A stretch of 64,000 nt of DNA from Jiangella alba. GTDB taxonomy: Bacteria > Actinomycetota > Actinomycetes > Jiangellales > Jiangellaceae. Below the pieces are notes generated by a model. It was not told where the DNA came from, did no database searches, and saw only the letters and a program-made list of their open reading frames with translations. Both the position numbers and the translations under genes were made by a program. The first letter of the stretch is position 1. Every line of letters starts with the position of its first letter. Below are positions 2,608 to 30,486 of the stretch, piece by piece. The stretch spans positions 1,977,501 to 2,041,500 of the forward strand of contig NZ_FNUC01000003.1 of NCBI RefSeq assembly GCF_900106035.1. Reading direction: 5' to 3'.

Positions 2608-2611
2608 CGGG

Positions 2612-3706: not shown

Positions 3707-3789
3707 GAGTACCTGCCTCCCTTGTGCCGGCGAACCTCGCCGGCCCCACCCATTGACGACGGAACGAGCCGAGTCTACCATCGGCTAAC

Positions 3790-3826
3790 GCGCTTAATCA
3801 TAGCGCTTAATCAAAGCGTTTAATCA
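3790..3826. promoter_or_regulatory. Three tandem GCGYTTAATCA repeats, candidate LacI-family operator
   Basis: Copies GCGCTTAATCA (3790-3800), GCGCTTAATCA (3803-3813) and GCGTTTAATCA (3816-3826) recur with an exact 13-nt period. They lie between the divergent LacI gene and the FAD oxidoreductase operon, in an AT-rich island that contrasts with its surroundings. LacI regulators usually bind palindromes with a central CG. The minus-strand reading (TTAAGCGCT, TTAAACGCTTT) contains half-palindromes of that style. The repeats are seen directly; the protein-operator assignment is inferred. Confidence 0.6.
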
Positions 3827-3850
3827 GCTTCTGACGAGGCAGGAGGCGCG

Positions 3851-5476: not shown

Positions 5477-5511
5477 CGCCCCCTGGACCACATCTCCCAC
5501 TGGAGGGACCC

Positions 5512-7101: not shown

Positions 7102-7120
7102 CCCCATCCGAGGAGACACC

Positions 7121-8548: not shown

Positions 8549-8552
8549 CGCC

Positions 8553-9470: not shown

Positions 9471-9478
9471 GAGCGACC

Positions 9479-10387: not shown

Positions 10388-10415
10388 CCCCCCGTCCAGC
10401 CCGCAAGGAGGAATC

Positions 10416-15215: not shown

Positions 15216-16093
15216 AGGTGCTCGTGACCGGCGGGTCCGGGCGGCTGGGCACGGCGGTGGTCGACGGGCTGCTGGCCTCCGGCCACGAGGTGGTGAGCGT
15301 CGACCGGCGCGCGCCCGACCGGCATCGTGGGCAGTGGTTCGCCGCCGACCTCACCGTCGCCGACGAGGCGCGCTGGGCGCTGGCCCAGGTGCGGCCCGAC
15401 GCCGTCGTGCACCTGGCCGCGATCGCGGTGCCGTTCAGCCGGCCGGAGCCGGAGATCCTGCGGGTGAACGCGGCGCTGGCCCACCACGTCTGCGCGGCCG
15501 CCCTCGACGCCGGGGTGCGCGGCGTCGTCGTCGCGAGCAGCCCGACGGTGGTCGGCTACGGCGCCCCGGCCGGCTGGGTCCCGTCGTACCTGCCGATCGA
15601 CGAGGCGCATCCGGTCCGGCCGTGGCACGCGTACGGCCTGTCGAAGCTGGTCGCCGAGCAGGTCGTGCGGATGTTCACCGCCCAGGCCGGTGACCGGATG
15701 CGGCTGAGCGCCGTCCGGCCGTGCTACGTGATCGGCGCGGACGAGTGGGCCGGCGCGCCGACCCAGCAGGGGCACACCGTCCGCGAGCGGCTGGACGACC
15801 CGGCGCTGGCGGCGGGGTCGCTGTTCAACTACGTCGACGCCCGGGACGCCGCGGACCTCGTCGCCCTGCTGCTGTCGGCGGCGGACGATCTCCCCAACGG
15901 CGAGACGTTCTTCGCCGGCGCGGCGGACGCGCTGGCGCGCGAGCCGCTGGCCGAGCTGCTGCCGCGGTTCCACCCCGGCACGGCCGGTGCGGCGGCCGCG
16001 CTGGTGGGTGACGCACCCGCCTTCAGCACGGCCCAGGCCGAGCGGCTGCTCGGCTGGAAACCCCGGCGGACCTGGCGAACGGAGCTGCGGTGA
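15212..16093 (+). CDS. NAD-dependent epimerase/dehydratase (SDR), possible uronate dehydrogenase
   Basis: A 293-residue extended SDR protein: nucleotide-binding GGSGRLG near residue 8, a serine-containing strand (VVASSPTVVGYG) and the catalytic YGLSK motif. It overlaps the preceding gene by ATGA and the following one by GTGA. Because the next two genes resemble KDG dehydratase and a sugar-acid dehydratase, one reading is that it oxidises a uronate to the aldarolactone, as Udh does in the oxidative pathway. The resemblance to characterised Udh is limited, so this role is inference from context. Confidence 0.82.
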   Translation: MKVLVTGGSGRLGTAVVDGLLASGHEVVSVDRRAPDRHRGQWFAADLTVADEARWALAQVRPDAVVHLAAIAVPFSRPEPEILRVNAALAHHVCAAALDAGVRGVVVASSPTVVGYGAPAGWVPSYLPIDEAHPVRPWHAYGLSKLVAEQVVRMFTAQAGDRMRLSAVRPCYVIGADEWAGAPTQQGHTVRERLDDPALAAGSLFNYVDARDAADLVALLLSAADDLPNGETFFAGAADALAREPLAELLPRFHPGTAGAAAALVGDAPAFSTAQAERLLGWKPRRTWRTELR

Positions 16094-16989
16094 CCCTCGA
16101 CGGTGTGTTGTTCTTCCCGGTGACGCCGTTCGGCCCGGCCGGGGCGGTCGACCCGCGGGTGCTGGCCGCGCACGTGGAGGACGGGCTGGCGCACGGGCCG
16201 GGCGCGGTCTTCGCTGCGTGCGGGACCGGCGAGTTCCACGCGCTCGACGCCGCCGAGCACGAGCTGGTCGTGACGACCGCGGTCCGGGCCGCCGCGGGCG
16301 CGGTGCCGGTGTTCGGCGGCACCGGCGGCGCGCTGCCCCATGCGGTGGCGTGTGCCCGGGGTGCTGAGCGGGCCGGCGCCGACGGGCTGCTGGTGCTGCC
16401 GCCGTACCTGGTCAGCGGGCCGGACGACGGCCTGGTCGCCTATGTCGAGGCGGTGGCGGCGGCGAGCGGCCTGCCGCTGGTGCTCTACCAGCGCGGCGGC
16501 GCGCGGTTCACCCCGTCGGCCGTGGCCCGGCTCGCGCGGCTGCCTGCGGTCGTCGGCTTCAAGGACGGGCTCGGCGACCTCGACCTGATGCAGCGGATCG
16601 TGCTCGCGGTCCGGTCCGAGGTGGGCGAGGAGTTCCAGTTCTTCAACGGCATGCCCACGGCGGAGCAGACCCAGGCCGCCTACCGGGGGATCGGGGTGCC
16701 GCTGTACTCGTCGGCGGCGTTCTGCTTCGCCCCCAGGGTGTCCGGGGCGTTCCATCGCGCGGTGGCCACCGGTGACGAGGCCGGCCGCACCCGGCTGCTC
16801 GCGGAGTTCTTCCAGCCACTGGTGGAGCTGCGCGACCAGGTCCCCGGCTACGCCGTCTCGCTGGTCAAGGCGGCGGTGCGGCTGCGCGGTCCGGAGGTCG
16901 GCGGGGTGCGCCCGCCGCTGGCCGACCCGTCCCCGGCGCACCTGCGGCGACTGCGGGAGCTGATCGAGGTGGCCGATGGGCTCGTCTGA
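16090..16989 (+). CDS. kdgD: 5-dehydro-4-deoxyglucarate dehydratase (DHDPS/NAL superfamily)
   Basis: A 299-residue class I aldolase-fold enzyme. It contains the Schiff-base Lys158 in VVGFKDGLGD and the Tyr133 motif (LYQRGGARFT), a combination typical of KDG dehydratase, which converts 5-dehydro-4-deoxy-D-glucarate to 2-oxoglutarate semialdehyde plus CO2 and water. Start GTG at 16090 overlaps the previous stop by 4 nt. With the downstream enolase-superfamily dehydratase it would make the lower half of the oxidative uronate/aldarate pathway, running in the cytoplasm. The semialdehyde dehydrogenase that completes the route is not in this window. Confidence 0.85.
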   Translation: MTLDGVLFFPVTPFGPAGAVDPRVLAAHVEDGLAHGPGAVFAACGTGEFHALDAAEHELVVTTAVRAAAGAVPVFGGTGGALPHAVACARGAERAGADGLLVLPPYLVSGPDDGLVAYVEAVAAASGLPLVLYQRGGARFTPSAVARLARLPAVVGFKDGLGDLDLMQRIVLAVRSEVGEEFQFFNGMPTAEQTQAAYRGIGVPLYSSAAFCFAPRVSGAFHRAVATGDEAGRTRLLAEFFQPLVELRDQVPGYAVSLVKAAVRLRGPEVGGVRPPLADPSPAHLRRLRELIEVADGLV

Positions 16990-18058
16990 CGTGGTGGCCG
17001 CGGTCTCGACCCGCCTGCTGCGGCTGCCGCTGCCCCGGCCGTGGGGCCCGGACGTGCCGTGCGTGCACGTCGTCGTCGTGGACGTCACCACCGAGGACGG
17101 CGCGACCGGCACCGGGTTCTCCTGGACGCCCACCATCGGCGCCACCGCCGTGCGGGCGCTGCTCGACGACGAGTGCACGCGGTTCGTCGTCGGCGGCCCG
17201 GCCGATCCCGAGGTCGTCTGGGACCCGCTGTGGCGGCACCTGCACGAGGCCGGCGGCGGCGGCGTCACCACCATCGCCATGGCCGGCATCGACCTCGCGC
17301 TGTGGGACCTGCGCGGCCGCCGCTGCGGCGCCGGGCTGACGGACCTGCTCGGCCGGCGCCGCGACTCCGCCGAGGTCTACGGCAGCGGCGTGAACCTGCA
17401 CTACGGCCTGGACGAGCTGGTCGAGCAGGCCGGCCGGTGGGTCGCGGCCGGGCACGACGCCGTCAAGATCAAGGTCGGCCGGCCGAGCCTGGACGAGGAC
17501 GTCGAACGCGTCGCCGCCGTCCGCGACGTCATCGGGCCCGGCCGCCGCCTCATGGTCGACGCGAACCAGCGGTGGGACCTCCCCACCGCGCGCCGCGCCA
17601 TCGGCGCCCTCGCCCGGTTCGACCTCGCCTGGGTCGAGGAGCCGCTCCTCGCCGACGCCACCTGGGCGTACCGGCAGCTGCGCGCCGCCGTCGACGTCCC
17701 GGTCGCCCTGGGCGAGAACGTCCACACGCTGCACCGTTTCCGCGACCTCCTCGACGCCGGCGCCTGCGACATCGTGCAGCCCAACGTCGTCCGCGTCGGG
17801 GGAGTGACGCCGTTCCTGCGCATCGCCGCGCTCGCCCGGGCCTACGGCGTCGCGCTGGCGCCGCACCTGCTGCCCGAGCTCTCCGGCCAGCTCGCGCTGA
17901 GCCTGCCCGAGCCGGTGCTGGTCGAGGACGTCGAGGACGCGTCGTTCGCCGCCCTCGGCTGCCTGGCCGCACCCAGCGGCGTCACGATCACCGGCGGCCG
18001 CCTCACCGCCAGCACCCGACCCGGCCTCGGCCTCAGCTTCCGCCACGCCCGCCGGTGA
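16976..18058 (+). CDS. Enolase-superfamily (mandelate racemase type) sugar-acid dehydratase or cycloisomerase
   Basis: A 360-residue enolase-superfamily enzyme. The C-terminal barrel shows the general base KIK pair (DAVKIKVG), metal ligands in LMVDANQRWD, VEEPL and LGENVH, and a histidine in LAPHLLPEL that fits an MR-type His-Asp dyad. By position, 14 nt overlapping KDG dehydratase, it likely makes the 3-deoxy-2-keto hexarate substrate from glucarate, galactarate or their lactone. Substrate identity cannot be settled from sequence. It is the last gene of the uronate operon and converges with the amidohydrolase gene (26-nt overlap). Confidence 0.85.
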   Translation: MGSSDVVAAVSTRLLRLPLPRPWGPDVPCVHVVVVDVTTEDGATGTGFSWTPTIGATAVRALLDDECTRFVVGGPADPEVVWDPLWRHLHEAGGGGVTTIAMAGIDLALWDLRGRRCGAGLTDLLGRRRDSAEVYGSGVNLHYGLDELVEQAGRWVAAGHDAVKIKVGRPSLDEDVERVAAVRDVIGPGRRLMVDANQRWDLPTARRAIGALARFDLAWVEEPLLADATWAYRQLRAAVDVPVALGENVHTLHRFRDLLDAGACDIVQPNVVRVGGVTPFLRIAALARAYGVALAPHLLPELSGQLALSLPEPVLVEDVEDASFAALGCLAAPSGVTITGGRLTASTRPGLGLSFRHARR

Positions 18059-19400
18059 TCTCGCCCGGGCCCGGGACGAACCGGCCGGTGCGGTCGTCGG
18101 CCGGCACACCGTCCTGGGCGACGAGCCGTCCGCGCAGGTAGGTGCGGACCACCCGGCCGGTGACCCGGCGGCCGTCGTACGGCGTCCAGCCGGCCTTGGA
18201 CAGCACGCACTCGTCGCGCAGCCGCCACTCGACGTCCGGGTCGACCAGCGCGAGGTCGGCGTCGAAGCCCGGTGCGACGGCGCCCTTGCGCGGCCAGAGC
18301 CCGTAGATCCGGGCCGGCACCTCGGCGTAGAGCCGGGCGACGTCCTCGTAGGCGAGGTGCTGCCGGGCGACGGCGTCCAGCAGCGCCGGCATGGTGGTGT
18401 CGAGACCCGGCAGGCCGAAGTGGACGTCCCACATGCTCCCGGTCTTCTGCTCCCGGGTCGCCGGCGCGTGGTCGGACGACACGTGGGTCAGCACGCCATC
18501 GCGCAGGAGCCGCCACATCGCGGCCTCGTCGGCGTCGCCGCGGGCCCGGGCCGGCGGCGTGAACTTGCGGAACGTCTCGTGCTCGACGACCTCGTGCTCG
18601 CGGAGCAGCAGGTACTGCGGGCAGGTCTCCGCCCAGATGCGCCCGCCGCGGCGGCGCTCGCCGGCCAGGTACTCGGCCACCTCCGGGTGGCTGACGTGCG
18701 CGACGGTGAGCCGCGCGCCGCTGCGCCGTGCCAGCAGGGCGGTCACGGCGGCGGCCACCACCTCGGCGTCGCGGTCGCGCCACTCGGGCAGCAGGCCGCC
18801 GTCGTCGCGCCCGTCGGCGCGCAGCAGCGCTTCCGCGTCCTCGGTCAGCGACTCGTCCTCGCAGTGGACGAGGCTCACCGCGCCGGCGTCGGCGGTCGCG
18901 CGCAGGTGCCCGCGCAGCGCCGCCGCACCGTGGCCGGGGATGCCGTGGGTGGTGCAGGTGAACACCTTGAAGAAGGCGACCCCGGCACGCCACAGGCCGG
19001 CGACGCTGCCGGCCTCGCCCGGCCACGCGTGCGCGGCCAGCGCGTAGTCGACGTTGGACCGGCCGGTGAGGTAGGAGACCTTCGTGTCCAGGTCGGCCAC
19101 GGTGCGCACCGGGGCGCCGTGGGAGTGCTCGACGATCGTGGTGGTGCCGGCGGCCGCGGCGGCGCGGGTGCCGGTGGGGAAGTCCTCGCGCTCGATGTCG
19201 CCGGGGTCCATGAGGTGCACGTGGCTGTCGACGCCGCCGGGCAGCACGAGCAGGCCGCCGGCGTCGACCACCTTCGCGGCGGCGGCGTCCAGCCGGCCGA
19301 CGGCGACGATGCGGCCGTCGCGGACGGCGACGTCGGCGCGCCGCCGTCCGGAGGAGGTGATGACGATGCCGCCGGAGATCAGCAGGTCGACGGTGGGCAC
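18033..19400 (-). CDS. Hydantoinase/dihydropyrimidinase/allantoinase-like amidohydrolase
   Basis: A 455-residue cyclic-amidohydrolase. It has the metal-binding HVH motif (LPGGVDSHVHLMDPGD), a lysine in the FFKVF segment where the family carries a carboxylated bridging Lys, further metal ligands (VHCEDES, LTVAHVSH) and the metal-proximal Asp (HVSSDHAP). It hydrolyses cyclic amides such as hydantoins, dihydropyrimidines or allantoin; the exact ring is unknown. I chose GTG at 19400, 14 nt after the upstream gene, because the family N-terminus (DLLISGGIVITSSG) begins there. It is the last gene of a four-gene minus-strand operon. Confidence 0.87.
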   Translation of the reverse strand: MPTVDLLISGGIVITSSGRRRADVAVRDGRIVAVGRLDAAAAKVVDAGGLLVLPGGVDSHVHLMDPGDIEREDFPTGTRAAAAAGTTTIVEHSHGAPVRTVADLDTKVSYLTGRSNVDYALAAHAWPGEAGSVAGLWRAGVAFFKVFTCTTHGIPGHGAAALRGHLRATADAGAVSLVHCEDESLTEDAEALLRADGRDDGGLLPEWRDRDAEVVAAAVTALLARRSGARLTVAHVSHPEVAEYLAGERRRGGRIWAETCPQYLLLREHEVVEHETFRKFTPPARARGDADEAAMWRLLRDGVLTHVSSDHAPATREQKTGSMWDVHFGLPGLDTTMPALLDAVARQHLAYEDVARLYAEVPARIYGLWPRKGAVAPGFDADLALVDPDVEWRLRDECVLSKAGWTPYDGRRVTGRVVRTYLRGRLVAQDGVPADDRTGRFVPGPGEITGGRGGS

Positions 19401-19414
19401 GGGCGGGTCCCCGT

Positions 19415-20509
19415 TCAGAGCCGGTACTCGGCGACGGCGGACGCCGACAGCCGCAGGCCGAAGCCGGGCTCGTCGCCCAGCGCGATGCAGCCGTCGACCA
19501 CCTGCACGGGCGTCTCCAGGATGGGCTGCCACCAGGGCTGGTACTCCTGCCACACCGCGTTGGGCGCCGCGCCCGCCAGGTGCGCGGAGTGCTCCATGAA
19601 CAGGTGCGGCGTCACCCGCAGCCCGAACACCTCGCACATCCGGGCCGCCTTCATCCACTCCGTCACCCCGCCCATGCGCATGAGGTCGGGCATGACGTAG
19701 TCCGCCGCCCGTCGCCGGGCGAGGGCGAGCAGCTCGTCGGCGTAGTAGTTCGACTCGCCGGTGCACAGCGGCATCTCGATGGCCGGCGCCGCGGCCGCGT
19801 AGTCGTCGACGTGGCCGTGCGGCATCGGCTCCTCCAGCCAGAAGAGGTCGAACTCGGCCAGGTCGCGGGCCATGCGGAGGGTCTGCTTGAGGTCCCACGC
19901 CTGGTTGGCGTCGACCATCAGCGCGACGTCGGGACCGATGGCCTCGCGCACCGCCCGCACCCGGGCGACGTCCTCAGCCGGGTCCGGCAGGCCGGCGCGC
20001 ATCTTGACCGCCCGGAACCCCTGGCCGACCAGCGACTGCGCCTCGGCGGCGAGGTCGTCGCGGCCGCGGTCGAGCCACAGCCCCTGGCTGGCGTACGTCT
20101 CGACCCGGTCGCGGAACCCGCCGAGCAGCCGGTGCACCGGGAGGCCCGCGGCCTGGCCGGTGATGTCCCAGCAGGCGGTGTCGATGGTGGAGATCGCCGC
20201 CGCGGCGAGGCCACGCCGGCCGGCGAACTCCACCGCCTTGGACAGCCGCGCCCACAGCGCCTCGGTGGCCACCGCGTCGGCGCCGACGGCCAGCTCGCCG
20301 AGATCGTCGATGAGCCGGACCAGGCTGGCGACGCGCCCGCGCCCGAAGGCGAAGCTCCAGGCGACGCCCTCGTGGCCGTCGGCGGTGCGCACCTGTACCA
20401 GTGCGGTGTCGATGGCCGGGATCGGGAACGCCGCCGTGACCAGCGGCCGCTCCAGCGGGATGGAGAGGAAGGTGGTGGTCACGTCGGTGATCGTGGTGCC
20501 GCTCGCCAC
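19415..20509 (-). CDS. Enolase-superfamily (mandelate racemase/muconate lactonising type) enzyme
   Basis: A 364-residue protein with a capping domain and a barrel bearing KMR (FRAVKMRAG), metal ligands (LMVDANQAWD, LEEPM, TGESNYY) and a His-containing motif (VTPHLFMEHS) matching the MR-type His-Asp pair. Family members racemise, dehydrate or cycloisomerise alpha-proton carboxylates. GTG start at 20509 with AAGGAG 6 nt upstream. It is not closely similar to the enolase-superfamily gene at 16976 and belongs to a different operon, between CoxG and the amidohydrolase, so its substrate is probably the open-chain or ring acid of that pathway. Confidence 0.85.
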   Translation of the reverse strand: MASGTTITDVTTTFLSIPLERPLVTAAFPIPAIDTALVQVRTADGHEGVAWSFAFGRGRVASLVRLIDDLGELAVGADAVATEALWARLSKAVEFAGRRGLAAAAISTIDTACWDITGQAAGLPVHRLLGGFRDRVETYASQGLWLDRGRDDLAAEAQSLVGQGFRAVKMRAGLPDPAEDVARVRAVREAIGPDVALMVDANQAWDLKQTLRMARDLAEFDLFWLEEPMPHGHVDDYAAAAPAIEMPLCTGESNYYADELLALARRRAADYVMPDLMRMGGVTEWMKAARMCEVFGLRVTPHLFMEHSAHLAGAAPNAVWQEYQPWWQPILETPVQVVDGCIALGDEPGFGLRLSASAVAEYRL

Positions 20510-20539
20510 AGTGGGCTCCTTACGGGACGTCGGGTGGGG

Positions 20540-21178
20540 TCAGGAGCGCCGGAACAGCCGGCGCACGAAGCGGGCCAGGGCCGCGCCCAGGCGGCGCAGC
20601 ACCGACCGGCCGGCGATCCCGAGCACGTCGATGGCCTCGGGCACCGTGTCGTCGAGCACCGGCGCGGGCACCCGGGTGGCCGCGCGCACGGGCGCCGGGT
20701 CATCGGCGGGCTGCTGGCCGGGCGACGCCGGCGGGGTCGCCGCCAGCTGCCGCGCCAGCGCCGTCGCGAATTGCCCGATGATGGCGTTCGCGACGTCGCT
20801 CATGACGCCGCGCCCGAGCTGGGCCGGCCGCCCGGTGATGTCGAGCTCGGTGAGCAGGTCGACGCGCGCCGCGCCCGCGTCGTCGGTCAGGTGCATGGTG
20901 ACGGTCGCGGCGGCCGTGCCGTTGCCGTGCGCGTCCTTGCCCCGGGCGGCGATGACGGCGGTGTACGACTCGTCGTCGGCGGACTCGATGCGGGCCCGCC
21001 CCTTGTACGACAGGCTCACCGGACCGACCTTCGCCTTGACCCGGCCGGAGAACTCGTCGCCGTCGACGGAGTCGAGCGTGGCGCCGGGCATGCACGGCGC
21101 CACCCGTTCCACGTCGAGCAGCACTCTCCAGGCCTCGTCCACCGGAACCGGGACGGTGAACGTGTTCTCGATCTCCAT
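20540..21178 (-). CDS. coxG: CoxG-type SRPBCC protein (molybdenum hydroxylase accessory)
   Basis: A 212-residue protein. The first 150 residues match the CO dehydrogenase subunit G family (IENTFTVPVPVDEAWRVLLD, CMPGATLDSVDG, VKAKVGPVSLSYKGRA). An Ala/Pro-rich linker and a basic C-terminal tail follow. In carboxydotrophs CoxG recruits the enzyme to the membrane; similar proteins sit in many molybdenum-hydroxylase loci that have nothing to do with CO. Its presence opposite the three Mo-hydroxylase subunits supports joint function. ATG with AAGGAG 5 nt upstream. Confidence 0.88.
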   Translation of the reverse strand: MEIENTFTVPVPVDEAWRVLLDVERVAPCMPGATLDSVDGDEFSGRVKAKVGPVSLSYKGRARIESADDESYTAVIAARGKDAHGNGTAAATVTMHLTDDAGAARVDLLTELDITGRPAQLGRGVMSDVANAIIGQFATALARQLAATPPASPGQQPADDPAPVRAATRVPAPVLDDTVPEAIDVLGIAGRSVLRRLGAALARFVRRLFRRS

Positions 21179-21206
21179 GACCGCTCCTTCGTTCCCGGCC
21201 GCCCGG

Positions 21207-22199
21207 TCAGGCGGCCCACGCGGCGGCCGACGTCAGCCACCGGTACGCCAGCAGGACGTTGAGCTCGTGGTTCGACCGGACCAGCGCGTCGAAGCGGCCG
21301 GCCTCGTCAGGGCCGGCCGACGGCACGACCTCGGACAGCTGCAGCGGGTCGTCCAGCGTGTACTCGGCCAGCATCTTCTCGACGGTCTCGCCGGCCTCGC
21401 TGCGCCGCGAGACCTCGGTGGCGAGGCGGTCCAGGTAGCTGAGGTGCCAGCTGATGCCGTCGGCGGCCGCGGTCAGCGGGCCGTGGCCGGGGACGAGCGT
21501 GTCGGCGCGCAGCGTCGCCTTCAGCGACCGGATGGACCGCCCGTAGCCGACGGGGTCGCCGGCCAGCAGCATGGGCGGGATGCCGGCGTGGCGCAGGAAG
21601 TTGCCGACCCAGGCGACGCCGGCGTCGGGGACGTGGACGATGGTGTCGCCCGAGCCGTTGCCGGGCCCGAAGTGCCACAGATGAACGACGCGCCCGCCGA
21701 GGTCGATCTCGCAGAACCGGTCGAACACCAGGTCGGGTGCGCGCCAGCTCACCACCTCGTCGAGGTGAGGGTCGCCGTAGAGGCTGCTGAGGCGCAGCTG
21801 CTTCTCCTCCTCCAGCCCCATCGTGGTCATGGCGGCCTTGTTGAGCCGCGACGACACGATCGTGACGTCGTCGCCGAACGACGCGTTCCCGAAGCTGTGG
21901 TCGCCGTGGTACGTGGTGTTGACCAGGTACCGGATCGGCTTGTCGGTGTGCTTGCCGACCACGTCCTGCAGGTAGCGGCCGACGCCGGGGGTGATGCCGG
22001 CGTCGATCACCAGGGCGGCGTCGCGGCCGACCACGAGCCCGTTGTTGTCCTTGGGCACGCGGTTCGCCATGAGGGCGTAGACGCCGTCGGCGAGCTCATG
22101 GGGGATCAGTTCGAGTCCGCGCGGGCTGAGGTTCGGCGGGACGAAGCCCGCCTGTCGCTCGCTGGTCTCGTGGATGACGGGCAACGGCCAGCAGACCAC
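21207..22199 (-). CDS. MBL-fold metallohydrolase
   Basis: A metallo-beta-lactamase-fold protein of about 330 residues. The metal motif is atypical (NTTYHGDHSFGN instead of HxHxDH), with later candidates in the MWHFGPG-like segment (LWHFGPGNGSGDT) and VPGHGPLT. Family members hydrolyse lactones, thioesters and amides. The frame extends to an ATG at 22217. I prefer GTG at 22199, because GAAGGGA (22207-22213) sits 7 nt upstream and the extra six residues are not family-like. It is the first gene of the minus-strand operon, and the shared dyad at 22225-22240 lies immediately upstream. Confidence 0.83.
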   Translation of the reverse strand: MVCWPLPVIHETSERQAGFVPPNLSPRGLELIPHELADGVYALMANRVPKDNNGLVVGRDAALVIDAGITPGVGRYLQDVVGKHTDKPIRYLVNTTYHGDHSFGNASFGDDVTIVSSRLNKAAMTTMGLEEEKQLRLSSLYGDPHLDEVVSWRAPDLVFDRFCEIDLGGRVVHLWHFGPGNGSGDTIVHVPDAGVAWVGNFLRHAGIPPMLLAGDPVGYGRSIRSLKATLRADTLVPGHGPLTAAADGISWHLSYLDRLATEVSRRSEAGETVEKMLAEYTLDDPLQLSEVVPSAGPDEAGRFDALVRSNHELNVLLAYRWLTSAAAWAA

Positions 22200-22224
22200 G
22201 GTCCGGTCCCTTCTCATGGGAAGT

Positions 22225-22240
22225 ATGTATTAAGATACGT
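22225..22240. promoter_or_regulatory. 16-bp dyad (ATGTAT-TAAG-ATACGT), copy 1 of 2
   Basis: The site lies in the divergent promoter region between the MBL hydrolase and asparaginase genes. Read on the minus strand it is ACGTAT-CTTA-ATACAT, identical in both half-sites to the element at 23298-23313. The ATGT-N8-ACRT geometry fits the ATGT-N8-ACAT consensus known for PadR-type repressors, and a PadR gene ends this cluster at 27003-27617. Regulation by that protein is inferred. Confidence 0.65.
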
Positions 22241-22282
22241 AAACGCTAACGTCAGTTGATTCCTATCGTCAAGGAGGGGCGC

Positions 22283-23269
22283 ATGACTCGGACGGTGCAC
22301 GTGCTCTCGCTCGGCGGCACGATCGCGATGACGACCAGGGCGGACGGGCGCGGCGTCGAGCCCGCCCTGGACGCGGCGGCGCTCGTGGCGGGCGTGCCGG
22401 AACTGGCGGAGGTGGCGACGATCGACGCCGAGGAGTTCCGGCGGCTGCCCGGTGCGCAGTTGCGGCTCACCGACCTCATCGCGCTCGCCGGGCGGGTGCG
22501 CGAGCTGGTCGCGGCCGGCGGCGACGGCGTCGTCGTGACCCAGGGCACCGACACCATCGAGGAGACGGCGTTCGCGCTCGATCTGCTGAGCGACACCGAC
22601 CGGCCGGTCGTCGTCACCGGCGCCCTGCGCGGCCCCGGTCAGCCCGGCGCGGACGGGCCGGCCAACCTGCTCGCCGCCGTCCGGGTGGCGGCCGGTGACG
22701 AGGCGCGCGGGCTGGGCGTCGTCGTCGCCATGAACGACGAGATCCACGCGGCCCGGTTCGTCCGCAAGCTGCACACGTCGCGGCCGTCGGCGTTCGCGTC
22801 GCCGAGCGCCGGGCCCCTCGGCTGGCTCGCGGAGGACCGGGTGCGAATACCGCTGCGGCCGGCCGCCCGGGTCGTCATCGGCGCGCCGCTGGGCACCCAG
22901 CCGCCGCCGGTCGCACTCGTGACCATCGCGCTCGGCGACGACGGGCGGGTCCTGCGGGAACTGGCCGACCTCGGGTTCGGCGGCGTCGTGCTGGCCGGGT
23001 TCGGCGCCGGCCATGTGCCCGGCCAGCTGGTCGAGGACGTCACCCGGCTGGCCCGGCGCATCCCGGTGGTGCTGGCCTCGCGCTGCGGCGCCGGCGAGGG
23101 GTTCCGCGCGACGTACGGGTTCCCGGGGTCCGAGCGCGACCTGCTGTCCCGCGGGCTGCTCACCGCCGGCGCGCTCGACCCGTTCAAGGCCCGGATCCTG
23201 CTGTCGCTCGCGCTGGGGGCCGGGTGGCGCACCCAGCGGATCGCCGTGGCCTTCGACCAGATCGCCTGA
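22283..23269 (+). CDS. L-asparaginase family amidohydrolase
   Basis: A 328-residue type I/II asparaginase-fold protein with both active-site threonine motifs: LSLGGTIAM near residue 9 and VVTQGTDTIEET near residue 85. ATG at 22283 is chosen over an upstream TTG because AAGGAGG (22271-22277) precedes it by 5 nt. It lacks a signal peptide. The protein may be a true asparaginase/glutaminase or act on a related open-chain amide. Its place at the head of the molybdenum-hydroxylase operon, opposite a hydantoinase, suggests it removes an amide nitrogen from a pathway intermediate. Confidence 0.85.
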   Translation: MTRTVHVLSLGGTIAMTTRADGRGVEPALDAAALVAGVPELAEVATIDAEEFRRLPGAQLRLTDLIALAGRVRELVAAGGDGVVVTQGTDTIEETAFALDLLSDTDRPVVVTGALRGPGQPGADGPANLLAAVRVAAGDEARGLGVVVAMNDEIHAARFVRKLHTSRPSAFASPSAGPLGWLAEDRVRIPLRPAARVVIGAPLGTQPPPVALVTIALGDDGRVLRELADLGFGGVVLAGFGAGHVPGQLVEDVTRLARRIPVVLASRCGAGEGFRATYGFPGSERDLLSRGLLTAGALDPFKARILLSLALGAGWRTQRIAVAFDQIA

Positions 23270-23297
23270 GCGGGCGTTGACGGCTGCTTATGACGAT

Positions 23298-23313
23298 ACG
23301 TATGGTGATACAT
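23298..23313. promoter_or_regulatory. 16-bp dyad (ACGTAT-GGTG-ATACAT), copy 2 of 2
   Basis: It lies in the 61-nt gap between asparaginase and the iron-sulfur subunit gene, 17 nt before the latter's ATG. Its half-sites are identical to those of the minus-strand reading of 22225-22240; only the 4-nt centre differs. An additional GATAC half-site copy just upstream (23295 region) makes a short direct repeat. Its position over the start of the Mo-hydroxylase genes suggests an internal, separately regulated promoter. Confidence 0.65.
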
Positions 23314-23330
23314 AAGTGAGAGGAGCGGCG

Positions 23331-23828
23331 ATGACCTGGATCGGGGAGGACGACAGCGCTGCCGTCGACGTCGTCGTCAACGGCCGGCCGGCGACCCTGC
23401 GGGTGCCGGCCAGGCGCACGCTCGCCGACGCGCTGCGCGACGACGGCCGCACCGGCACGCACCTGGGCTGCGAGCACGGCGTCTGCGGCGCCTGCACGGT
23501 GCTGCTGGACGGCCGGCCGGTCCGGTCCTGCCTGACGCTGGCCGTGCAGGCCGAGGGCGCCGACGTCGAGACCGTCGAAGGGCTGGCCGACGGGCCTGAG
23601 CTGCACGTGCTGCAGCGGGCCTTCCACGAGCACGGCGCCCTGCAGTGCGGGTTCTGCACGCCCGGCTTCCTCATGCTCGCGCTGGGCCTGTTGCGCGCGG
23701 AGCCAGGCGCGTCGCCCGAGCGCGTCCGCGAGGTCCTGACGTCCAACCTGTGCCGCTGCACCGGCGGCGCGCCCATCGTGCGGGCGGTCCTCGCCGCGCA
23801 GCGCGAGCTGGCCGGGGACGTGGCGTGA
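23331..23828 (+). CDS. Molybdenum hydroxylase small subunit, two [2Fe-2S] clusters (CoxS/XdhC type)
   Basis: A 165-residue electron-transfer subunit. It carries a plant-ferredoxin-type cluster motif (GCEHGVCGACTVLLDG plus the following Cys in VRSCLTL) and the C-terminal four-helix cluster motifs CGFCTPG and NLCRCTG. All eight expected cysteines are visible. ATG at 23331 is chosen with GAGAGGAG upstream; a GTG at 23316 is also in frame. It passes electrons from the Mo centre to the FAD subunit encoded next, with a 4-nt overlap. Confidence 0.93.
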   Translation: MTWIGEDDSAAVDVVVNGRPATLRVPARRTLADALRDDGRTGTHLGCEHGVCGACTVLLDGRPVRSCLTLAVQAEGADVETVEGLADGPELHVLQRAFHEHGALQCGFCTPGFLMLALGLLRAEPGASPERVREVLTSNLCRCTGGAPIVRAVLAAQRELAGDVA

Positions 23829-24691
23829 AGCCGCCGCCGTTCGCCTACGCCCGCGCCGAGTCGCTCGAGCACGCGCTGGCGCTGCTGGACGAGGCCGGCG
23901 AGGACGCCAAGGTGCTGGCCGGCGGGCAGAGCCTCGTCCCGCTGCTGGCCTACCGCCTCGCCCGGCCGACCCATCTGGTCGACATCGGCCGCCTGCCCGG
24001 ACTGGACACCCTGCGCGCCGACGACACCGGGCTCGTCGTCGGCGCGCTGGTCCGTCACCACGAGCTGGAGCGGTCGGCCGTCCTGAGCGGTCCGTGGCAG
24101 GTCCTGCGCGAGGCCGCCGCGCTCATCGGGCACCATCCCATCCGCATCCGCGGCACGCTCGGCGGCAGCCTGGCGCACGCCGACCCCGCGGCCGAGCTGC
24201 CGGTGGCCGCCACCGCCCTGGACGCGTCGGTCACGGTGCGCTCCAGCGGCGGCGAACGGGCGATTCCGGCCGCGGAGTTCTTCGCCGGCCCGTTCATGAC
24301 CGTGCTGGAGCCGGAGGAGATCGTCGTCGACCTCCGGTGCCCGGCCCCGCCGGCGGGCCTGCGCAGCGCGTTCGCCGAGTTCAGCCCGCGGGCGGGCGAC
24401 TTCGCGTTCGTCTCCGTCGCCGTGGCCGTCGCGCTGGACGACGGCGGCCGGGTCACGCACGCACGCGTCGTCCTGGGCTGTGTCGCCGCACGTCCGCTGC
24501 GCGCGGGCGAGGCCGAGGACGCACTGCTGGGCTCGGCCCTGACCGAGCAGGACATCGACGCCGCCGCCCGCGCGGCGGCCGCGGGCTGCGACCCCGCCGA
24601 CGGCCCGCACGCGAGCGCGACGTTCCGGCGCGAGCTGGTCGCCGTCCTGGTGGGGCGGACCCTGCGACGGCTGAGGGAGGACCACCCATGA
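23825..24691 (+). CDS. Molybdenum hydroxylase FAD-binding medium subunit (CoxM type)
   Basis: A 288-residue FAD subunit with the two signature flavin-binding motifs: AGGQSLVPLLAYRLARPTHL near residue 32 and GTLGGSLAHADPAAELP near residue 109. The CO_deh_flav C-terminal domain follows. GTG at 23825 overlaps the previous TGA by 4 nt, and its end overlaps the large-subunit start by 4 nt, so all three subunits are translationally coupled. Confidence 0.93.
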   Translation: MKPPPFAYARAESLEHALALLDEAGEDAKVLAGGQSLVPLLAYRLARPTHLVDIGRLPGLDTLRADDTGLVVGALVRHHELERSAVLSGPWQVLREAAALIGHHPIRIRGTLGGSLAHADPAAELPVAATALDASVTVRSSGGERAIPAAEFFAGPFMTVLEPEEIVVDLRCPAPPAGLRSAFAEFSPRAGDFAFVSVAVAVALDDGGRVTHARVVLGCVAARPLRAGEAEDALLGSALTEQDIDAAARAAAAGCDPADGPHASATFRRELVAVLVGRTLRRLREDHP

Positions 24692-26949
24692 CCCGAGTCC
24701 GCGGACTCGTCGGCGCCGACGTCGAACGGCTCGCCGACCTCCCGCTGCTCACCGGCGCGGCGCGGTACGTCGCCGACGTGTGTCGCGACGGCGAGGTGCA
24801 CGCCAGGATCGTGCGCAGCCAGGTGGCCCACGCACGGATCGCCGGCATCGACACCGCCGACGCCGCGGCCATGCCCGGCGTGCTGGCGGTCATCACCGCC
24901 GACGACCTCCCCGACGTGCGCATCCCTATCCGGCTGCCGCTCGCCGACACGCCCCGGGCCAGACGGGTGCTCCAGCCGCCGCTGGCCCGGGGCGTCGTCC
25001 GGTACGTGGGCGAGCCGATCGCCGTCGTCGTCGCCACCGACCCCTACCTGGCCGAGGACGCCGCCGAGCTGGTCGACGTCGACCTCGACGAGCTCGACGT
25101 CGTCGCGGACCTCGCCAGCGCGGCGGACCTCGGCGCGCCGGTGCTCCACCCCGGCCTCGGCGACAACGTCGTCAGCAGCTACCCGCTGCGCCACGGCGAC
25201 GTCGACGCGGCGTTCGCCCGGGCCGACGTCGTCGTCCGCGAGCGGCTGCGGATGCACCGGCACACCGCCGTCCCGATGGAGACGCGCGGCGCCATCGCCG
25301 AGATCGACCCCGTCACCGGCCGGCTCACGCTCTGGGGCGGCGCGAAGGTGAAGCACGCCGTGCGCGCGGCGCTCGGCGAGATGCTGGCGATCGACCCGGC
25401 GGACATCAGGATCGTCGAGGTGAGCGTCGGCGGTGGCTTCGGTGTGCGCGGCGAGGCCTACCCGGAGGACTACCTCGTGGCGTTCCTGGCGCTGCGGCTG
25501 GGGCGTCCGGTCAAGTGGATCGAGGACCGCACCGAGCACTTCGTGGCCACCAACCACGCCCGCGAGCAGGAGCACGAGCTCGAGATCGCCGCGACGGCCG
25601 ACGGCCGGCTGCTCGCCTTCCGCGACCGCGCCTGGTGCGACCAGGGCGCCTACGCGAGGTCGCAGGGCACGCTGCCGGAGCTGCTGCCGGCGCTGCACCT
25701 GCCGGGCCCGTACCGGTGGGAGGCGTTCGCGCTGGAGACCACGGGCGTTCTCACCAACCGCACGCCGGTCGGCACCTACCGCGGGCCGGGCATGACGGAG
25801 GCGGCGTTCGTCCGCGAGCGGCTGCTGGACGTCCTGGCGGGGCGGCTGGGGCTCGACCCGGCCGAGCTGCGCCGGCGCAACCTCATCCGCGACGACGACC
25901 TGCCGTTCACCTGGTCGCTCGACGCCGGATCGGCGCCGGTCCCGCCGATCAGCTACCTGAGCGGCGCGTTCGGGTCGTCCTTCGAGACCCTGCTCGCGCG
26001 GGCCGGCTACGACGAGCTCCGCCGCGAGGCGGCGGCCAGGTCCGGCGACGGCGTCAGCGCGGGCGTCGGCGTCGCCACCTACGTCGAGGTGGGCGCCATG
26101 GGCCCGTTCGAGGACGCGCGCATCGTGCCCGCCGCGGACGGGAGCTTCGTCGTCCACGTCGGGGTCGCGTCGCTGGGCCAGGGCGTCGAGACGGTGCTGG
26201 CGCAGGTCGCGGGCGACGAGCTCGGCGTGCCGATGGACCGCCTGCGCGTCGACCACCACGACACCGACGCCGTCCCCATGGGGTTCGGGGCGTTCGCCAG
26301 CCGGTCCACCCCCGTGGCCGGCAACGCGGTGCTGCTGGCCGCCCGCGACCTGCGCGCCAAGGCCGCGAAGCTGCTGGGGGCCGAGCCCGGCGACGTGGAG
26401 TTCCGCGACGGGCGCGCGCACGCCCCCGGGGGCGCGTCGTGCCCGCTCCAGGAGGTGGGCGAGGGCCGGGCGCGCTTCGACAAGCCGCATCCGACGTTCT
26501 CGTTCGGCGCCGCGCTCAGCGTGGTGGAGGTCGAGCGCGATACCGGGCGGGTGCGCGTCGTGCGCCACGTCGTCGCCCACGACGTCGGCCGCGCGGTGAA
26601 CCCGGCCCTGGTCCGCGGCCAGCTGGCGGGCGCGGCGAGCCAGGGCATCGGCGCCGCGCTGCTGGAGGAGCTCAGCTACGACGAGCGGGCCCAGCCGATG
26701 GCGACGACGCTCGGCGACTACCGCCTCCCGTCGGCCGGTGAGCTGCCCGACGTCGAGGTGATCGTCCTCGAGCACCCCGCACCGGGCAACCCGCTGGGCG
26801 CCAAGGGCGCGGGGGAGTCCGGCATGGTCGGGACGCCGGCCGCCGTGGCCAACGCGGTCGCCGACGCGCTGGGCGCGGCCGGCGCCCGGGTGACCACCTT
26901 GCCGCTCACCGCCGACCGCGTCCGCGCGCTGCTGCGCGAGGCCACATGA
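24688..26949 (+). CDS. Molybdenum hydroxylase large subunit (xanthine-dehydrogenase family, Mo-cofactor binding)
   Basis: A 753-residue Mo-pterin subunit. It shows VSVGGGFGVRGE, the substrate-channel loop TYRGPGMTEA and the catalytic Glu in GAKGAGESGMVG near the C-terminus. The AYRCSFR loop of true CO dehydrogenase is absent, so this is not a CO oxidiser. It also departs from the RGxGRPE motif of purine hydroxylases (RGPGMTE). It should hydroxylate a carbon next to nitrogen in an aromatic heterocycle or an aldehyde. Together with CoxG, amidohydrolase and asparaginase-like neighbours it suggests N-heterocycle breakdown; the substrate is unknown. Confidence 0.9.
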   Translation: MTRVRGLVGADVERLADLPLLTGAARYVADVCRDGEVHARIVRSQVAHARIAGIDTADAAAMPGVLAVITADDLPDVRIPIRLPLADTPRARRVLQPPLARGVVRYVGEPIAVVVATDPYLAEDAAELVDVDLDELDVVADLASAADLGAPVLHPGLGDNVVSSYPLRHGDVDAAFARADVVVRERLRMHRHTAVPMETRGAIAEIDPVTGRLTLWGGAKVKHAVRAALGEMLAIDPADIRIVEVSVGGGFGVRGEAYPEDYLVAFLALRLGRPVKWIEDRTEHFVATNHAREQEHELEIAATADGRLLAFRDRAWCDQGAYARSQGTLPELLPALHLPGPYRWEAFALETTGVLTNRTPVGTYRGPGMTEAAFVRERLLDVLAGRLGLDPAELRRRNLIRDDDLPFTWSLDAGSAPVPPISYLSGAFGSSFETLLARAGYDELRREAAARSGDGVSAGVGVATYVEVGAMGPFEDARIVPAADGSFVVHVGVASLGQGVETVLAQVAGDELGVPMDRLRVDHHDTDAVPMGFGAFASRSTPVAGNAVLLAARDLRAKAAKLLGAEPGDVEFRDGRAHAPGGASCPLQEVGEGRARFDKPHPTFSFGAALSVVEVERDTGRVRVVRHVVAHDVGRAVNPALVRGQLAGAASQGIGAALLEELSYDERAQPMATTLGDYRLPSAGELPDVEVIVLEHPAPGNPLGAKGAGESGMVGTPAAVANAVADALGAAGARVTTLPLTADRVRALLREAT

Positions 26950-27002
26950 GTCGTTCGGTACTGTTGCGGATATTCATCGGTTTGCTGATGTAGGGACACC
27001 CC

Positions 27003-27617
27003 ATGTCGCTGCGCCACGCGCTGCTCGCCACCCTCACCGCCCAGCCCATGACCGGGTACGAGCTGATCAAGTACTTCGACGGCAGCATCGCCTACGTCTG
27101 GAGCGCGCCGCACAGCCAGATCTACCCTGAGCTGCGGCGCATGGAGCGCGACGGCCTGATCGACGCCGACGTCGTGCCGCGTGGCGACCGCGCGCAGAAG
27201 CGGGTCTACTCGATCAACGACGCCGGTAGGGCCGAGCTGCGGCGGTGGTCCGGCGAGCTCATCCCGTACCAGTCCGAGCGCGACGCCTACCGGCTCAAGG
27301 CCGCCCACTTCGAGCAGTCCAGCTACGACGCGGCGCGGCGCCAGCTGCACGAGCACATCGGCCACTACGCGCGGGCCCTGCAGGGCTGGCAGCACATGCT
27401 CGACGACCTCGACGCCCGCCGCGTCTCGCTGCTGCGCGAGCGGCTCAGCCGGCGGCCCGAGGCCGAGCACGAGGCGATCGTCGCGTTCCGCAAGTTCGCC
27501 TTCGAGGGCGAGGTGGCGAAGGCGCAGATGGAGATCGACTGGGCGCGCAAGGGGCTGGCCCTGCTGGACGACCTCGAACAGCGCGGCGTCCCCCTGGCCG
27601 GCGACGACAACCCCTAG
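27003..27617 (+). CDS. PadR-family transcriptional regulator
   Basis: A 204-residue regulator with an N-terminal winged helix (LRHALLATLTAQPMTGYELIKY, then SQIYPELRRMERDGLI) and the C-terminal helical Vir_act_alpha_C domain that dimerises PadR proteins. It begins 53 nt after the large Mo subunit gene, with AGGGA before the ATG. PadR proteins commonly repress catabolic or detoxification genes and release DNA on binding a small aromatic. It is the best candidate to bind the paired dyads at 22225 and 23298. Confidence 0.9.
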   Translation: MSLRHALLATLTAQPMTGYELIKYFDGSIAYVWSAPHSQIYPELRRMERDGLIDADVVPRGDRAQKRVYSINDAGRAELRRWSGELIPYQSERDAYRLKAAHFEQSSYDAARRQLHEHIGHYARALQGWQHMLDDLDARRVSLLRERLSRRPEAEHEAIVAFRKFAFEGEVAKAQMEIDWARKGLALLDDLEQRGVPLAGDDNP

Positions 27618-27694: not shown

Positions 27695-28696
27695 ATGAGT
27701 GTGGATGCGTGGCTGGCGGAACTGGGCGTCGGCGGCCTGGGCGAGGCCGGCGAGGCGGAGTTCTCGGGGCTGGCGCAGCGGCACCGGCGGGAGCTGCACG
27801 TGCACTGCTACCGGATGCTCGGGTCGTTCGAGGACGCCGAGGACACCGTGCAGGAGACGTTCCTCCGTGCGTGGCGGCGGCGCGAGACGTTCGAGGGGCG
27901 GTCGACGCTGCGGGCGTGGCTGTACCGCATCGCCACCAACGCCTGCCTGGACCTGCTCGCCAAGCGCCGCCCCGAGCCCGCGACCGGCGGCGAGGTGCTG
28001 TGGCTGCAGCCCTACCCGGACCGGCTGCTGGACGAGCTGCCCGCGGGTGACGCGGACGAGCCCGAGGCCGTCGCCGTGGCGCGGGAGACGATCGAGCTGG
28101 CGTACCTGGTCGCGGTCCAGCACCTCGCGCCTCGACCGCGGGCCGTGCTGATCCTGCGCGACGTGCTCGGCTGGCCGGCGAAAGACGTCGCGGAGCTGCT
28201 CGGCGACTCCGTCAACTCCGTGAACAGCGCGCTGCAGCGGGCCCGCGCCGGCATGCGCGAGCACCTGCCCGCCGAGCGGCAGGACTGGACCGGCGACGAG
28301 GACGACGCCGGGACGCGCGAGCTGGTGCGCCGCTACACCGACGCCAGTGTCGCCACGGACGTCGACGCGCTGGCCGCGCTGCTGCGCGACGACGTCCGCT
28401 GCTCGATGCCGCCCACGCCGGGCCTGCACATCGGCCGCGACGCCGTGGTGACCAACTGGGTCGACGACGGCTTCGAGCGCATGGAGGGCCTGCGCGCCGT
28501 CTCCACCGCCGTGAACCGCCAGCCCGCCGTCGCCTTCTACCAGTGGCGCGAGGACGCCGGCGCGTACCTCCCCCTGACGATCGACGTCCTGCGCGCCACC
28601 GGCGGGGCGATCACCGAGATCGTCACGTTCCACGCCGACCGGTTCCCGCGGCTCGGGCTGCCGGAGCGCCTGGCCGCGGACGGAGGGACGGCATGA
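27695..28696 (+). CDS. ECF RNA polymerase sigma factor with C-terminal SnoaL-like domain (SigG/TIGR02960-like)
   Basis: A 333-residue sigma-70 family factor. Region 2 is visible as LHVHCYRMLGSFEDAEDTVQ, with the -10 recognition helix (ETFLRAWRRRETF). Region 4 is LAPRPRAVLILRDVLGWPAK. Residues about 210-333 form a SnoaL/NTF2-like domain that in this ECF group modulates activity in place of a separate anti-sigma factor. ATG follows GGAAGGA by 7 nt. The DUF6069-like membrane gene overlaps its stop by 4 nt and is likely its functional partner. Confidence 0.9.
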   Translation: MSVDAWLAELGVGGLGEAGEAEFSGLAQRHRRELHVHCYRMLGSFEDAEDTVQETFLRAWRRRETFEGRSTLRAWLYRIATNACLDLLAKRRPEPATGGEVLWLQPYPDRLLDELPAGDADEPEAVAVARETIELAYLVAVQHLAPRPRAVLILRDVLGWPAKDVAELLGDSVNSVNSALQRARAGMREHLPAERQDWTGDEDDAGTRELVRRYTDASVATDVDALAALLRDDVRCSMPPTPGLHIGRDAVVTNWVDDGFERMEGLRAVSTAVNRQPAVAFYQWREDAGAYLPLTIDVLRATGGAITEIVTFHADRFPRLGLPERLAADGGTA

Positions 28697-30481: not shown

Positions 30482-30486
30482 TCTAG
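29473..30486 (+). CDS. IS481-family transposase (DDE integrase fold)
   Basis: A 337-residue transposase: N-terminal helix-turn-helix (YARAAERFSVSITTARRWAD), a second HTH, then an rve-type catalytic core with Asp in DLIHVDIKKLG, Asp in VLTDNGSCYRS and Glu in QTNGKVERFNRTL. The frame begins further upstream (GTG 29425), but GTG 29473 has GGAGG 5 nt before it. The reading frame runs past the end of the element: its last codon and TAG stop (30484-30486) are provided by the duplicated target TCTAGG. Confidence 0.93.
   Translation: MSHANATLAPAGRLRLARLVVDKRWSYARAAERFSVSITTARRWADRYRELGEPGMVDRSSRPRRSPNQLPKRIEHRVVKLRVTRRWGPARIAYHLGLNPSTVHQVLVRYRCPRLKWTDPATGTRIKTSSRDKNRYEHATPGDLIHVDIKKLGRIPDGGGWRMFGRGSEQARRANAAADHAARAGASPSRGYVYLHHAVDDHSRLAYSEILTDERKETAAAFWTRANAHFAAHSITVKAVLTDNGSCYRSRLWAKTLGKKIKHRRTRPYRPQTNGKVERFNRTLLEEWAYACAYRSEADRAAAYPTWLHHYNHHRGHTSLNGKSPIDRVPNLPGQNI

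What the first reader, a model, noticed from the sequence alone, without database searches (positions are those of the whole stretch)
18033..27617. Unassigned molybdenum-hydroxylase/amidohydrolase catabolic system
A three-subunit Mo hydroxylase with CoxG, a hydantoinase-like enzyme, an enolase-superfamily enzyme, an asparaginase-family amidohydrolase, an atypical MBL hydrolase and a PadR regulator form one divergent unit. I know no textbook pathway using this exact set. A plausible scheme is ring hydroxylation, cyclic-amide opening, amide removal and rearrangement of the resulting acid, that is, breakdown of an unknown N-heterocycle.
Basis: partly seen in the sequence, partly recalled or inferred. 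Interest (0 to 1): 0.72.

Follow-up and report, generated by a model that had tools for sequence, protein, structure and literature searches.

The report
PadR-controlled N-heterocycle breakdown gene cluster
Nine neighbouring genes in a soil actinobacterium form one jointly controlled unit that probably oxidises a nitrogen-containing ring, opens it and strips off the nitrogen; the parts are known enzyme families, but the set, and the ring it eats, look new.

Summary
In detail: nine intact genes at 18033-27617 form one divergent unit, and its halves belong together. A PadR-type palindrome occurs exactly twice in the 7.68-Mb genome, at the divergent MBL/asparaginase promoter and upstream of CoxS. 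The enzyme set recurs in five other genomes, once all on one strand. DNA matching J. muralis begins and ends at the unit's edges in the stretch compared. The Mo enzyme lacks the CO-dehydrogenase loop; among solved structures it is nearest nicotine-pathway Kdh, but two Kdh substrate residues are changed. The 'hydantoinase' sits in a clade of its own, with the asparaginase-family enzyme nearby in 20 of 32 loci against 0 of 48 paralogue loci, and in two haloarchaeal plasmids. The 'atypical MBL' shares fold and catalytic zinc ligands with chlorothalonil dehalogenase. Best reading: Mo hydroxylation of an N-heteroaromatic, opening of the cyclic imide, ammonia release, then dehydration of the acid by the enolase-superfamily enzyme. 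Substrate and MBL step are unknown. It is a new combination of known families; every reaction is inferred.

The parts
18033..19400 (-). HYD: cyclic amidohydrolase of its own clade; predicted ring-opening (imide/lactam) hydrolase
   Evidence: PF01979 71.0 bits; 287.9 bits against the NCBIfam allantoinase cut-off 357.85; H60, H62, K145, H179, H235, D310 invariant in 18 of 18 aligned; clade support 99/97
19415..20509 (-). ENO2: mandelate-racemase-subgroup enolase-superfamily enzyme; predicted hydroxy-acid dehydratase
   Evidence: PF13378/PF02746; nearest solved 2og9, 228.6 bits; K169-x-R171, D200, E226, E252, D275, H302 invariant in 6 of 6
20540..21178 (-). CoxG: CoxG-family protein with a basic C-terminal tail; predicted membrane tether for the Mo enzyme
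   Evidence: PF06240 73.9 bits; tail RRLGAALARFVRRLFRRS
21207..22217 (-). MBL: chlorothalonil-dehalogenase-type MBL-fold enzyme, predicted mono-zinc hydrolase; true start probably between 22184 and 22217
22224..22241 (.). operator 1, TATGTATTAAGATACGTA, at the divergent MBL/ASN promoter
   Evidence: at most 1 mismatch at the divergent or first-gene promoter in L038, L039, L040, L045, L131
22283..23269 (+). ASN: atypical asparaginase-family amidohydrolase; predicted half-amidase
   Evidence: PF00710/PF17763; the only match to this protein in its genome at E 1e-3; T13, T89, D90, K162 invariant in 14 of 14
23297..23314 (.). operator 2, TACGTATGGTGATACATA, upstream of CoxS
   Evidence: exact in L038 and L131, 2 mismatches in L039, not seen in L045 or L040
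23316..23828 (+). CoxS: [2Fe-2S] subunit of the Mo hydroxylase, eight cysteines (start 23316 or 23331)
   Evidence: PF01799/PF00111
23825..24691 (+). CoxM: FAD subunit
   Evidence: PF00941/PF03450
24688..26949 (+). CoxL: molybdopterin subunit, TYRGPG loop, catalytic Glu kept
   Evidence: PF02738/PF20256/PF01315; nearest solved 7dqx Kdh, 497.6 bits
27003..27617 (+). PadR-family regulator
   Evidence: PF03551 61.7 bits

Best explanation
One PadR-controlled catabolic regulon for a small N-heteroaromatic compound. CoxSML, tethered to the membrane by CoxG, takes oxygen from water to hydroxylate a ring carbon next to nitrogen, turning a lactam-like ring into a cyclic imide, and passes electrons through [2Fe-2S] and FAD to the respiratory chain. 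The MBL, a mono-zinc enzyme with an Asn ligand, hydrolytically exchanges a substituent of the activated ring (least certain step). HYD opens the cyclic imide to a half-amide, ASN releases ammonia to give a (hydroxy) dicarboxylic acid, and ENO2 dehydrates this acid to a 2-oxo acid for central metabolism. PadR represses both operons until the substrate or an intermediate binds. Shown by sequence: gene set, shared operator, conservation, intact catalytic residues. Inferred: every reaction, their order, the substrate, and that PadR binds the operator.
For: Unity: exactly two operator sites genome-wide, both here, reversed control 0; operator conserved; enzyme set in six genomes in two gene orders, one with all eight enzyme genes on one strand; edges within 30 bases of a conserved DNA block. 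Mo hydroxylase: nearest solved enzyme is 6-hydroxypseudooxynicotine dehydrogenase, 497.6 bits, against 418.1 for a CO dehydrogenase and 409.7 for quinoline 2-oxidoreductase; Glu748, Phe269 and Arg383 equivalents kept in 6 of 6. HYD with ASN: 20 of 32 loci against 0 of 48, also two haloarchaeal plasmids. MBL: catalytic zinc-ligand set as in Chd. ENO2: MR-subgroup residues in 6 of 6. [quoted passage not shown] Imidase then amidase after a Mo nicotinate hydroxylase is known in Aspergillus (PMC9304392, passages; PMC5746545, abstract start in the listing).
Against: Sixteen of the 20 HYD-ASN loci lack this module (two of them, L051 and L060, have other Cox-like genes; L060's are doubtful), so the pair's substrate need not come from a Mo hydroxylase. 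A congener (L133) has HYD-ASN without the module. Twelve of 32 HYD loci show no ASN, six of them with 10 kb on both sides. The CoxL tree does not resolve the module's clade with Kdh or any other reference. CoxL's best NCBIfam model is a glyceraldehyde dehydrogenase, though under its cut-off. No transporter lies in the module. No PadR was found in L040. The MBL step rests on fold and zinc site alone.
Confidence: 0.45

Rival explanations
1. Oxidative pyrimidine route: the Mo enzyme oxidises uracil or thymine to (5-methyl)barbiturate, HYD stands in for barbiturase and ASN for ureidomalonase.
For: The number of oxidation and hydrolysis steps fits (route recalled); one haloarchaeal HYD-ASN locus carries a cytosine permease and the other a methylmalonate-semialdehyde dehydrogenase.
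Against: Leaves ENO2 and MBL without a role. Barbiturase belongs to the cyanuric-acid-hydrolase family (recalled; papers on that family appear in the listing), not to the HYD fold.
Confidence: 0.15
2. The Mo enzyme acts on a side-chain aldehyde or a late intermediate, and HYD-ASN on a separate ring part of the same compound.
For: NCBIfam's best CoxL model is glyceraldehyde dehydrogenase, 568.5 bits, under its 790 cut-off; most HYD-ASN pairs do without this Mo enzyme; the other common setting has an aldehyde dehydrogenase instead.
Against: The best solved relative is an N-heteroaromatic hydroxylase.
Confidence: 0.17
3. A route for a halogenated or nitrile-bearing N-heteroaromatic xenobiotic in which the MBL is a true hydrolytic dehalogenase.
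For: Chd fold and zinc site; patchy distribution, 3 of 12 genomes of the genus have the MBL.
Against: 25-27% identity to Chd; Chd's structural zinc ligands absent; module proteins outside Jiangella are 55-77% identical to the window's, which I read as divergence older than agrochemicals.
Confidence: 0.1
4. Two independent functions that merely share a regulator and a divergent promoter.
For: HYD and ASN occur together without the rest.
Against: HYD and ASN sit in opposite halves, and the whole enzyme set persists after rearrangement onto one strand in L040.
Confidence: 0.06

Closest known systems
Nicotine-pathway Kdh (6-hydroxypseudooxynicotine dehydrogenase) of Arthrobacter nicotinovorans (PMC8305194, passages)
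   Same: Three-subunit Mo hydroxylase, best solved hit; Glu748, Phe269, Arg383 equivalents kept; a gene annotated CoxG-family lies near the Kdh-like gene on a tobacco-isolate Arthrobacter plasmid.
   Different: Glu345 and Trp551, whose mutation abolished Kdh activity, are Gly and Phe in 6 of 6 module CoxL; no hydantoinase, asparaginase or enolase is named in that plasmid's stretch.
Chlorothalonil hydrolytic dehalogenase Chd, Pseudomonas sp. CTN-3 (6uxu; PMC12784990, passages)
   Different: Structural zinc ligands His143/Asp146 missing; 25-27% identity; activity unknown.
Aspergillus nidulans hxn nicotinate pathway (HxnS, HxnM imidase, HxnN amidase; PMC9304392, passages)
   Same: Mo hydroxylase first; later a cyclic imide is opened to a half-amide, then the amide is hydrolysed to a hydroxy-diacid.
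   Different: HxnM and HxnN belong to other protein families (PgdA/PuuE-like; FAAH-like) by the paper's account.
Rubrobacter xylanophilus allantoin cluster (PMC4016543, passages and one section)
   Same: Cyclic amidohydrolase (allantoinase) with an asparaginase-like gene nearby.
   Different: Carbamoyltransferase, carbamate kinase and uricase present; no Mo hydroxylase, enolase or MBL in the table passage seen; not compared by sequence here.
Aerobic CO dehydrogenase (Cox)
   Same: CoxSML architecture and CoxG.
   Different: No CSFR active-site loop; the genome has a separate CoxL with VAYACSFR (L143).

Membership tests
Chd (chlorothalonil dehalogenase) | Catalytic zinc ligands Asp116, His117, Asn216, His257, and His114 | tested here: met
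   Ligands from PMC12784990 (passages); printed 6uxu positions plus 27 give these numbers; aligned with Chd in 6 of 6 MBL; invariant in 11 of 11 homologues
Chd (chlorothalonil dehalogenase) | Structural zinc ligands His143 and Asp146 | tested here: not met
   Aligned to Gly and Glu in the window protein
Chd (chlorothalonil dehalogenase) | Fold | tested here: met
Chd (chlorothalonil dehalogenase) | Hydrolytic aryl dehalogenation | not testable with these tools
   Needs an assay
Kdh (6-hydroxypseudooxynicotine dehydrogenase) | Glu748, Phe269 and Arg383 | tested here: met
   6 of 6 module CoxL, mapped through a plasmid protein that has all the paper's residues at the paper's numbers
Kdh (6-hydroxypseudooxynicotine dehydrogenase) | Substrate residues Glu345 and Trp551 (no activity detected when mutated, PMC8305194) | tested here: not met
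   Gly and Phe in 6 of 6
Aerobic CO dehydrogenase | Active-site CSFR loop | tested here: not met
   TYRGPG instead in 6 of 6; 549.1 of 950 and 461.4 of 991.15 bits against NCBIfam cut-offs
Allantoinase, dihydropyrimidinase/hydantoinase, dihydroorotase | NCBIfam cut-offs | tested here: not met
   287.9 of 357.85, 252.8 of 393.25; all 25 models shown of 58 are below cut-off
Cyclic amidohydrolase superfamily | Binuclear-metal ligands including the bridging Lys | tested here: met
   H60, H62, K145, H179, H235, D310 invariant in 18 of 18; roles recalled
Type II L-asparaginase | NCBIfam subfamily cut-off 314.3 | tested here: not met
   185.7 bits
Asparaginase family | Two catalytic threonines, Asp and Lys | tested here: met
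   T13, T89, D90, K162 invariant in 14 of 14; roles recalled
Type II L-asparaginase | Ser of the substrate carboxylate pocket (SPH segment in the two nearest solved chains) | tested here: not met
   Gly-Ala in 12 of 12 bacterial members, Ser-Pro kept in 2 of 2 archaeal; role recalled
Mandelate racemase subgroup of the enolase superfamily | Lys-x-Lys/Arg, three acidic metal ligands, Asp-His dyad | tested here: met
   6 of 6; roles recalled
L-talarate/galactarate dehydratase | NCBIfam cut-off 500 | tested here: not met
   267.2 bits
PadR regulon | PadR binds the palindrome | not testable with these tools
   Site ATGT-N8-ACRT resembles the recalled PadR consensus; PadR gene beside 5 of 6 complete modules

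The most novel reading that the evidence does not exclude
The module is a previously undescribed bacterial N-heterocycle route in which a chlorothalonil-dehalogenase-type zinc enzyme does hydrolytic substitution on an activated ring made by a Mo hydroxylase, and a new imidase/half-amidase pair (HYD-ASN), shared with archaea, removes the ring nitrogen. It would give a natural physiological setting, and a plausible origin, for the Chd active site.
Probability: 0.3. Interest if true: 0.7.

Novelty: new variant of a known kind. Interest (0 to 1): 0.52.

Why it matters
If right, it defines a new ring-opening and nitrogen-release pair found in bacteria and haloarchaea, and gives a natural genetic context for a zinc site known from a pesticide-degrading enzyme. 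The two-site operator and sharp boundaries make the whole route testable in one strain with one reporter and a few gene removals.

Tried and rejected
CO dehydrogenase: rejected, no CSFR loop, and a separate CoxL with that loop is in the genome. Two unrelated halves: rejected. The upstream enolase 16976-18058 as a member: rejected; its four-fold-site divergence to G010 is 0.284 against 0.126 in HYD, and no such gene was matched beside the J. muralis module. Isonicotinate/citrazinate route: none of the 20 papers listed of 69 was a gene-level account, so it is neither supported nor excluded. Literature on this gene set: none of the papers listed (20 of 69; 9 of 9; 12 of 12; 7 of 7; 6 of 6; 4 of 4; 10 of 27; 7 of 7; 3 of 3) describes it, judged from titles and abstract starts except for the papers cited as passages; only open-licence PMC papers are covered. 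Plasmid records: no match at 60% identity or more for HYD, MBL or CoxL. Cox-like proteins of L060 proved doubtful and are not used as support.

Limits: the genome-contig scan kept the best 80 of 328 loci. The 48 control loci are all labelled Pseudomonadota or a group within it, nearly all Alphaproteobacteria, unlike the 32 test loci, and 8 of the 48 have less than 10 kb on one side or both. Gene calls in fetched loci come from my own simple caller. In the HYD tree the tool warned of long branches among the control rows. L139 and L140 were not read.
Full report
What is there. The window lies in a high-GC genome of 7.68 Mb; Jiangella muralis is its nearest named relative in the scan (89% in HYD). 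Nine genes occupy 18033-27617: on the minus strand MBL, CoxG, ENO2, HYD in transcription order, on the plus strand ASN, CoxS, CoxM, CoxL, PadR. Gaps are short, and CoxS/CoxM and CoxM/CoxL overlap by 4 bases. All nine genes show dN/dS below 1 against G010 (L131) and Actinomadura geliboluensis (L039).

One unit, not two. An 18-base palindrome TAYGTAT-N4-ATACRTA lies between the divergent MBL and ASN starts (22224-22241) and just upstream of CoxS (23297-23314); at up to 2 mismatches the window has 3 matches against a mean of 0.01 in 100 shuffles. In the whole genome these are the only two exact sites, and the reversed control pattern gave none. In the fetched modules the site is at the divergent promoter, or before the first gene in L040, with at most one mismatch (L038, L039, L040, L045, L131); a second site lies upstream of CoxS in L038 and L131 (exact) and L039 (2 mismatches) but was not seen in L045 or L040. 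The complete enzyme set is in the window, L131 (G010), J. muralis (L038; L132 is the same contig by its length), A. geliboluensis (L039), [Actinomadura] parvosata subsp. kistnae (L040; a Nonomuraea by recalled naming) and Streptomyces aculeolatus (L045). L040 has all eight enzyme genes on one strand and no PadR match in its 21 kb. L069 (A. soli) has PadR, a 315-base piece of CoxL and the last part of HYD only: a module with its interior lost, or a contig fault.

How rare. MBL relatives at E up to 1e-30 occur in 7 of 393 genomes of the class: 3 of the 12 of this genus, and 4 others with 47-56% paralogues that have no Cox genes beside them. ENO2 at E up to 1e-110 occurs in 2 of 345 genomes of the order of G104.

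The core pair. The best 80 of 328 HYD relatives in named genomes fall into 32 loci at 49-89% identity and 48 at 33-37%. An ASN relative lies in 20 of the 32 and 0 of the 48. Of the 20, 4 are the full module. Of the other 16, 9 (L043, L044, L046, L048, L050, L052, L053, L065, L067) share another set: ASN, an MFS-like transporter, FrsA-like hydrolase, isochorismatase-type hydrolase, ACMSD-like amidohydrolase, aldehyde dehydrogenase and HYD, mostly with a regulator that I read as GntR-like without a family search (L052 lacks the ACMSD-like gene between them and L050 is cut; families searched in L044 only). Of the 12 loci without ASN, six are cut by a contig end within 10 kb and six are not. A congener outside the module's range, G001 (L133), also has HYD (66%) next to ASN (48%). 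Two haloarchaeal plasmids have HYD (42%) beside and divergent from ASN (37-39%). In a tree of 28 rows the HYD clade, with one archaeal and one acidobacterial member, is separate from ten paralogues with support 99/97; relations inside it are weak. ASN is the only match to itself in this genome at E 1e-3, so it is not a copy of a housekeeping enzyme here.

The enzymes. HYD keeps all six metal ligands in 18 of 18 aligned but is below the cut-off of all 25 NCBIfam models shown of 58. ASN keeps the catalytic residues in 14 of 14, while 12 of 12 bacterial members replace the Ser-Pro of the substrate pocket by Gly-Ala (roles recalled). ENO2 has the MR-subgroup residues in 6 of 6. CoxL is nearest among solved proteins to Kdh of nicotine breakdown (497.6 bits), keeps Glu748, Phe269 and Arg383 and has Gly for Glu345 and Phe for Trp551 in 6 of 6 (roles from PMC8305194, passages). 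So it should hydroxylate in the same way but on another substrate, probably without Kdh's amine tail. The module's CoxL form one clade (100/100), whose place among the references is unresolved. CoxS has eight cysteines, enough for two [2Fe-2S] clusters, and CoxG has a basic tail.

Proposed working. Mo hydroxylation next to ring nitrogen, with CoxG as membrane tether (anchoring by CoxG homologues: PMC11962113, passages); hydrolytic substitution by MBL; imide opening by HYD; ammonia release by ASN; dehydration of the resulting acid by ENO2. The imide, half-amide, acid logic has a fungal precedent in nicotinate breakdown with unrelated enzymes (PMC9304392, passages). Against it stand the many HYD-ASN pairs without this Mo enzyme, the missing transporter, the unresolved CoxL tree and a best NCBIfam CoxL model that is an aldehyde dehydrogenase (below cut-off).

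Verdict. The finding is real and can be bounded sharply. It is a new combination of known enzyme families, with a distinct HYD clade tied to ASN and a Chd-type enzyme in a natural setting. The substrate is not known.

Noticed in passing
L044:2472-11356 and similar loci (L043, L046, L048, L050, L052, L053, L065, L067): A second conserved setting of HYD-ASN: regulator and ASN divergent from MFS-like transporter, FrsA-like hydrolase, isochorismatase-type hydrolase, ACMSD-like amidohydrolase, aldehyde dehydrogenase and HYD.
   Followed up: partly
L135:7701-10191 and L136:7705-10197: Haloarchaeal plasmids carry the divergent HYD-ASN pair, with methylmalonate-semialdehyde dehydrogenase (L135) or cysteine hydrolase, ABC transporter and cytosine permease (L136).
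   Followed up: partly
L040:17808-20120; also L127, L128, L129, L130: MBL paralogues with the same zinc ligands and no Cox genes nearby; in L040 the next gene is an M24 metallopeptidase, and unannotated genes of similar length lie near those of L127, L128 and L129.
   Followed up: partly
window 190-18058: Separate cluster that reads as sugar or sugar-acid use (beta-glucosidase-like, LacI-like regulator, ABC transporter, Gfo/Idh, DHDPS-like, enolase-superfamily gene; only the last was searched). Its last three genes diverge from G010 two to three times as much at four-fold sites as HYD, CoxL and PadR.
   Followed up: partly
window 29425-30486: ORF that reads as a transposase, near the module's right side (not searched).
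   Followed up: no
window 27695-28696: ORF that reads as an ECF sigma factor just after PadR; present in G010 but not matched beside the J. muralis module.
   Followed up: no
L143 (own genome): A separate CoxL with the VAYACSFR loop of CO dehydrogenase.
   Followed up: partly
L069:3598-5199: Actinomadura soli contig with PadR, a piece of CoxL and the last part of HYD: a module with its interior missing, or an assembly fault.
   Followed up: no
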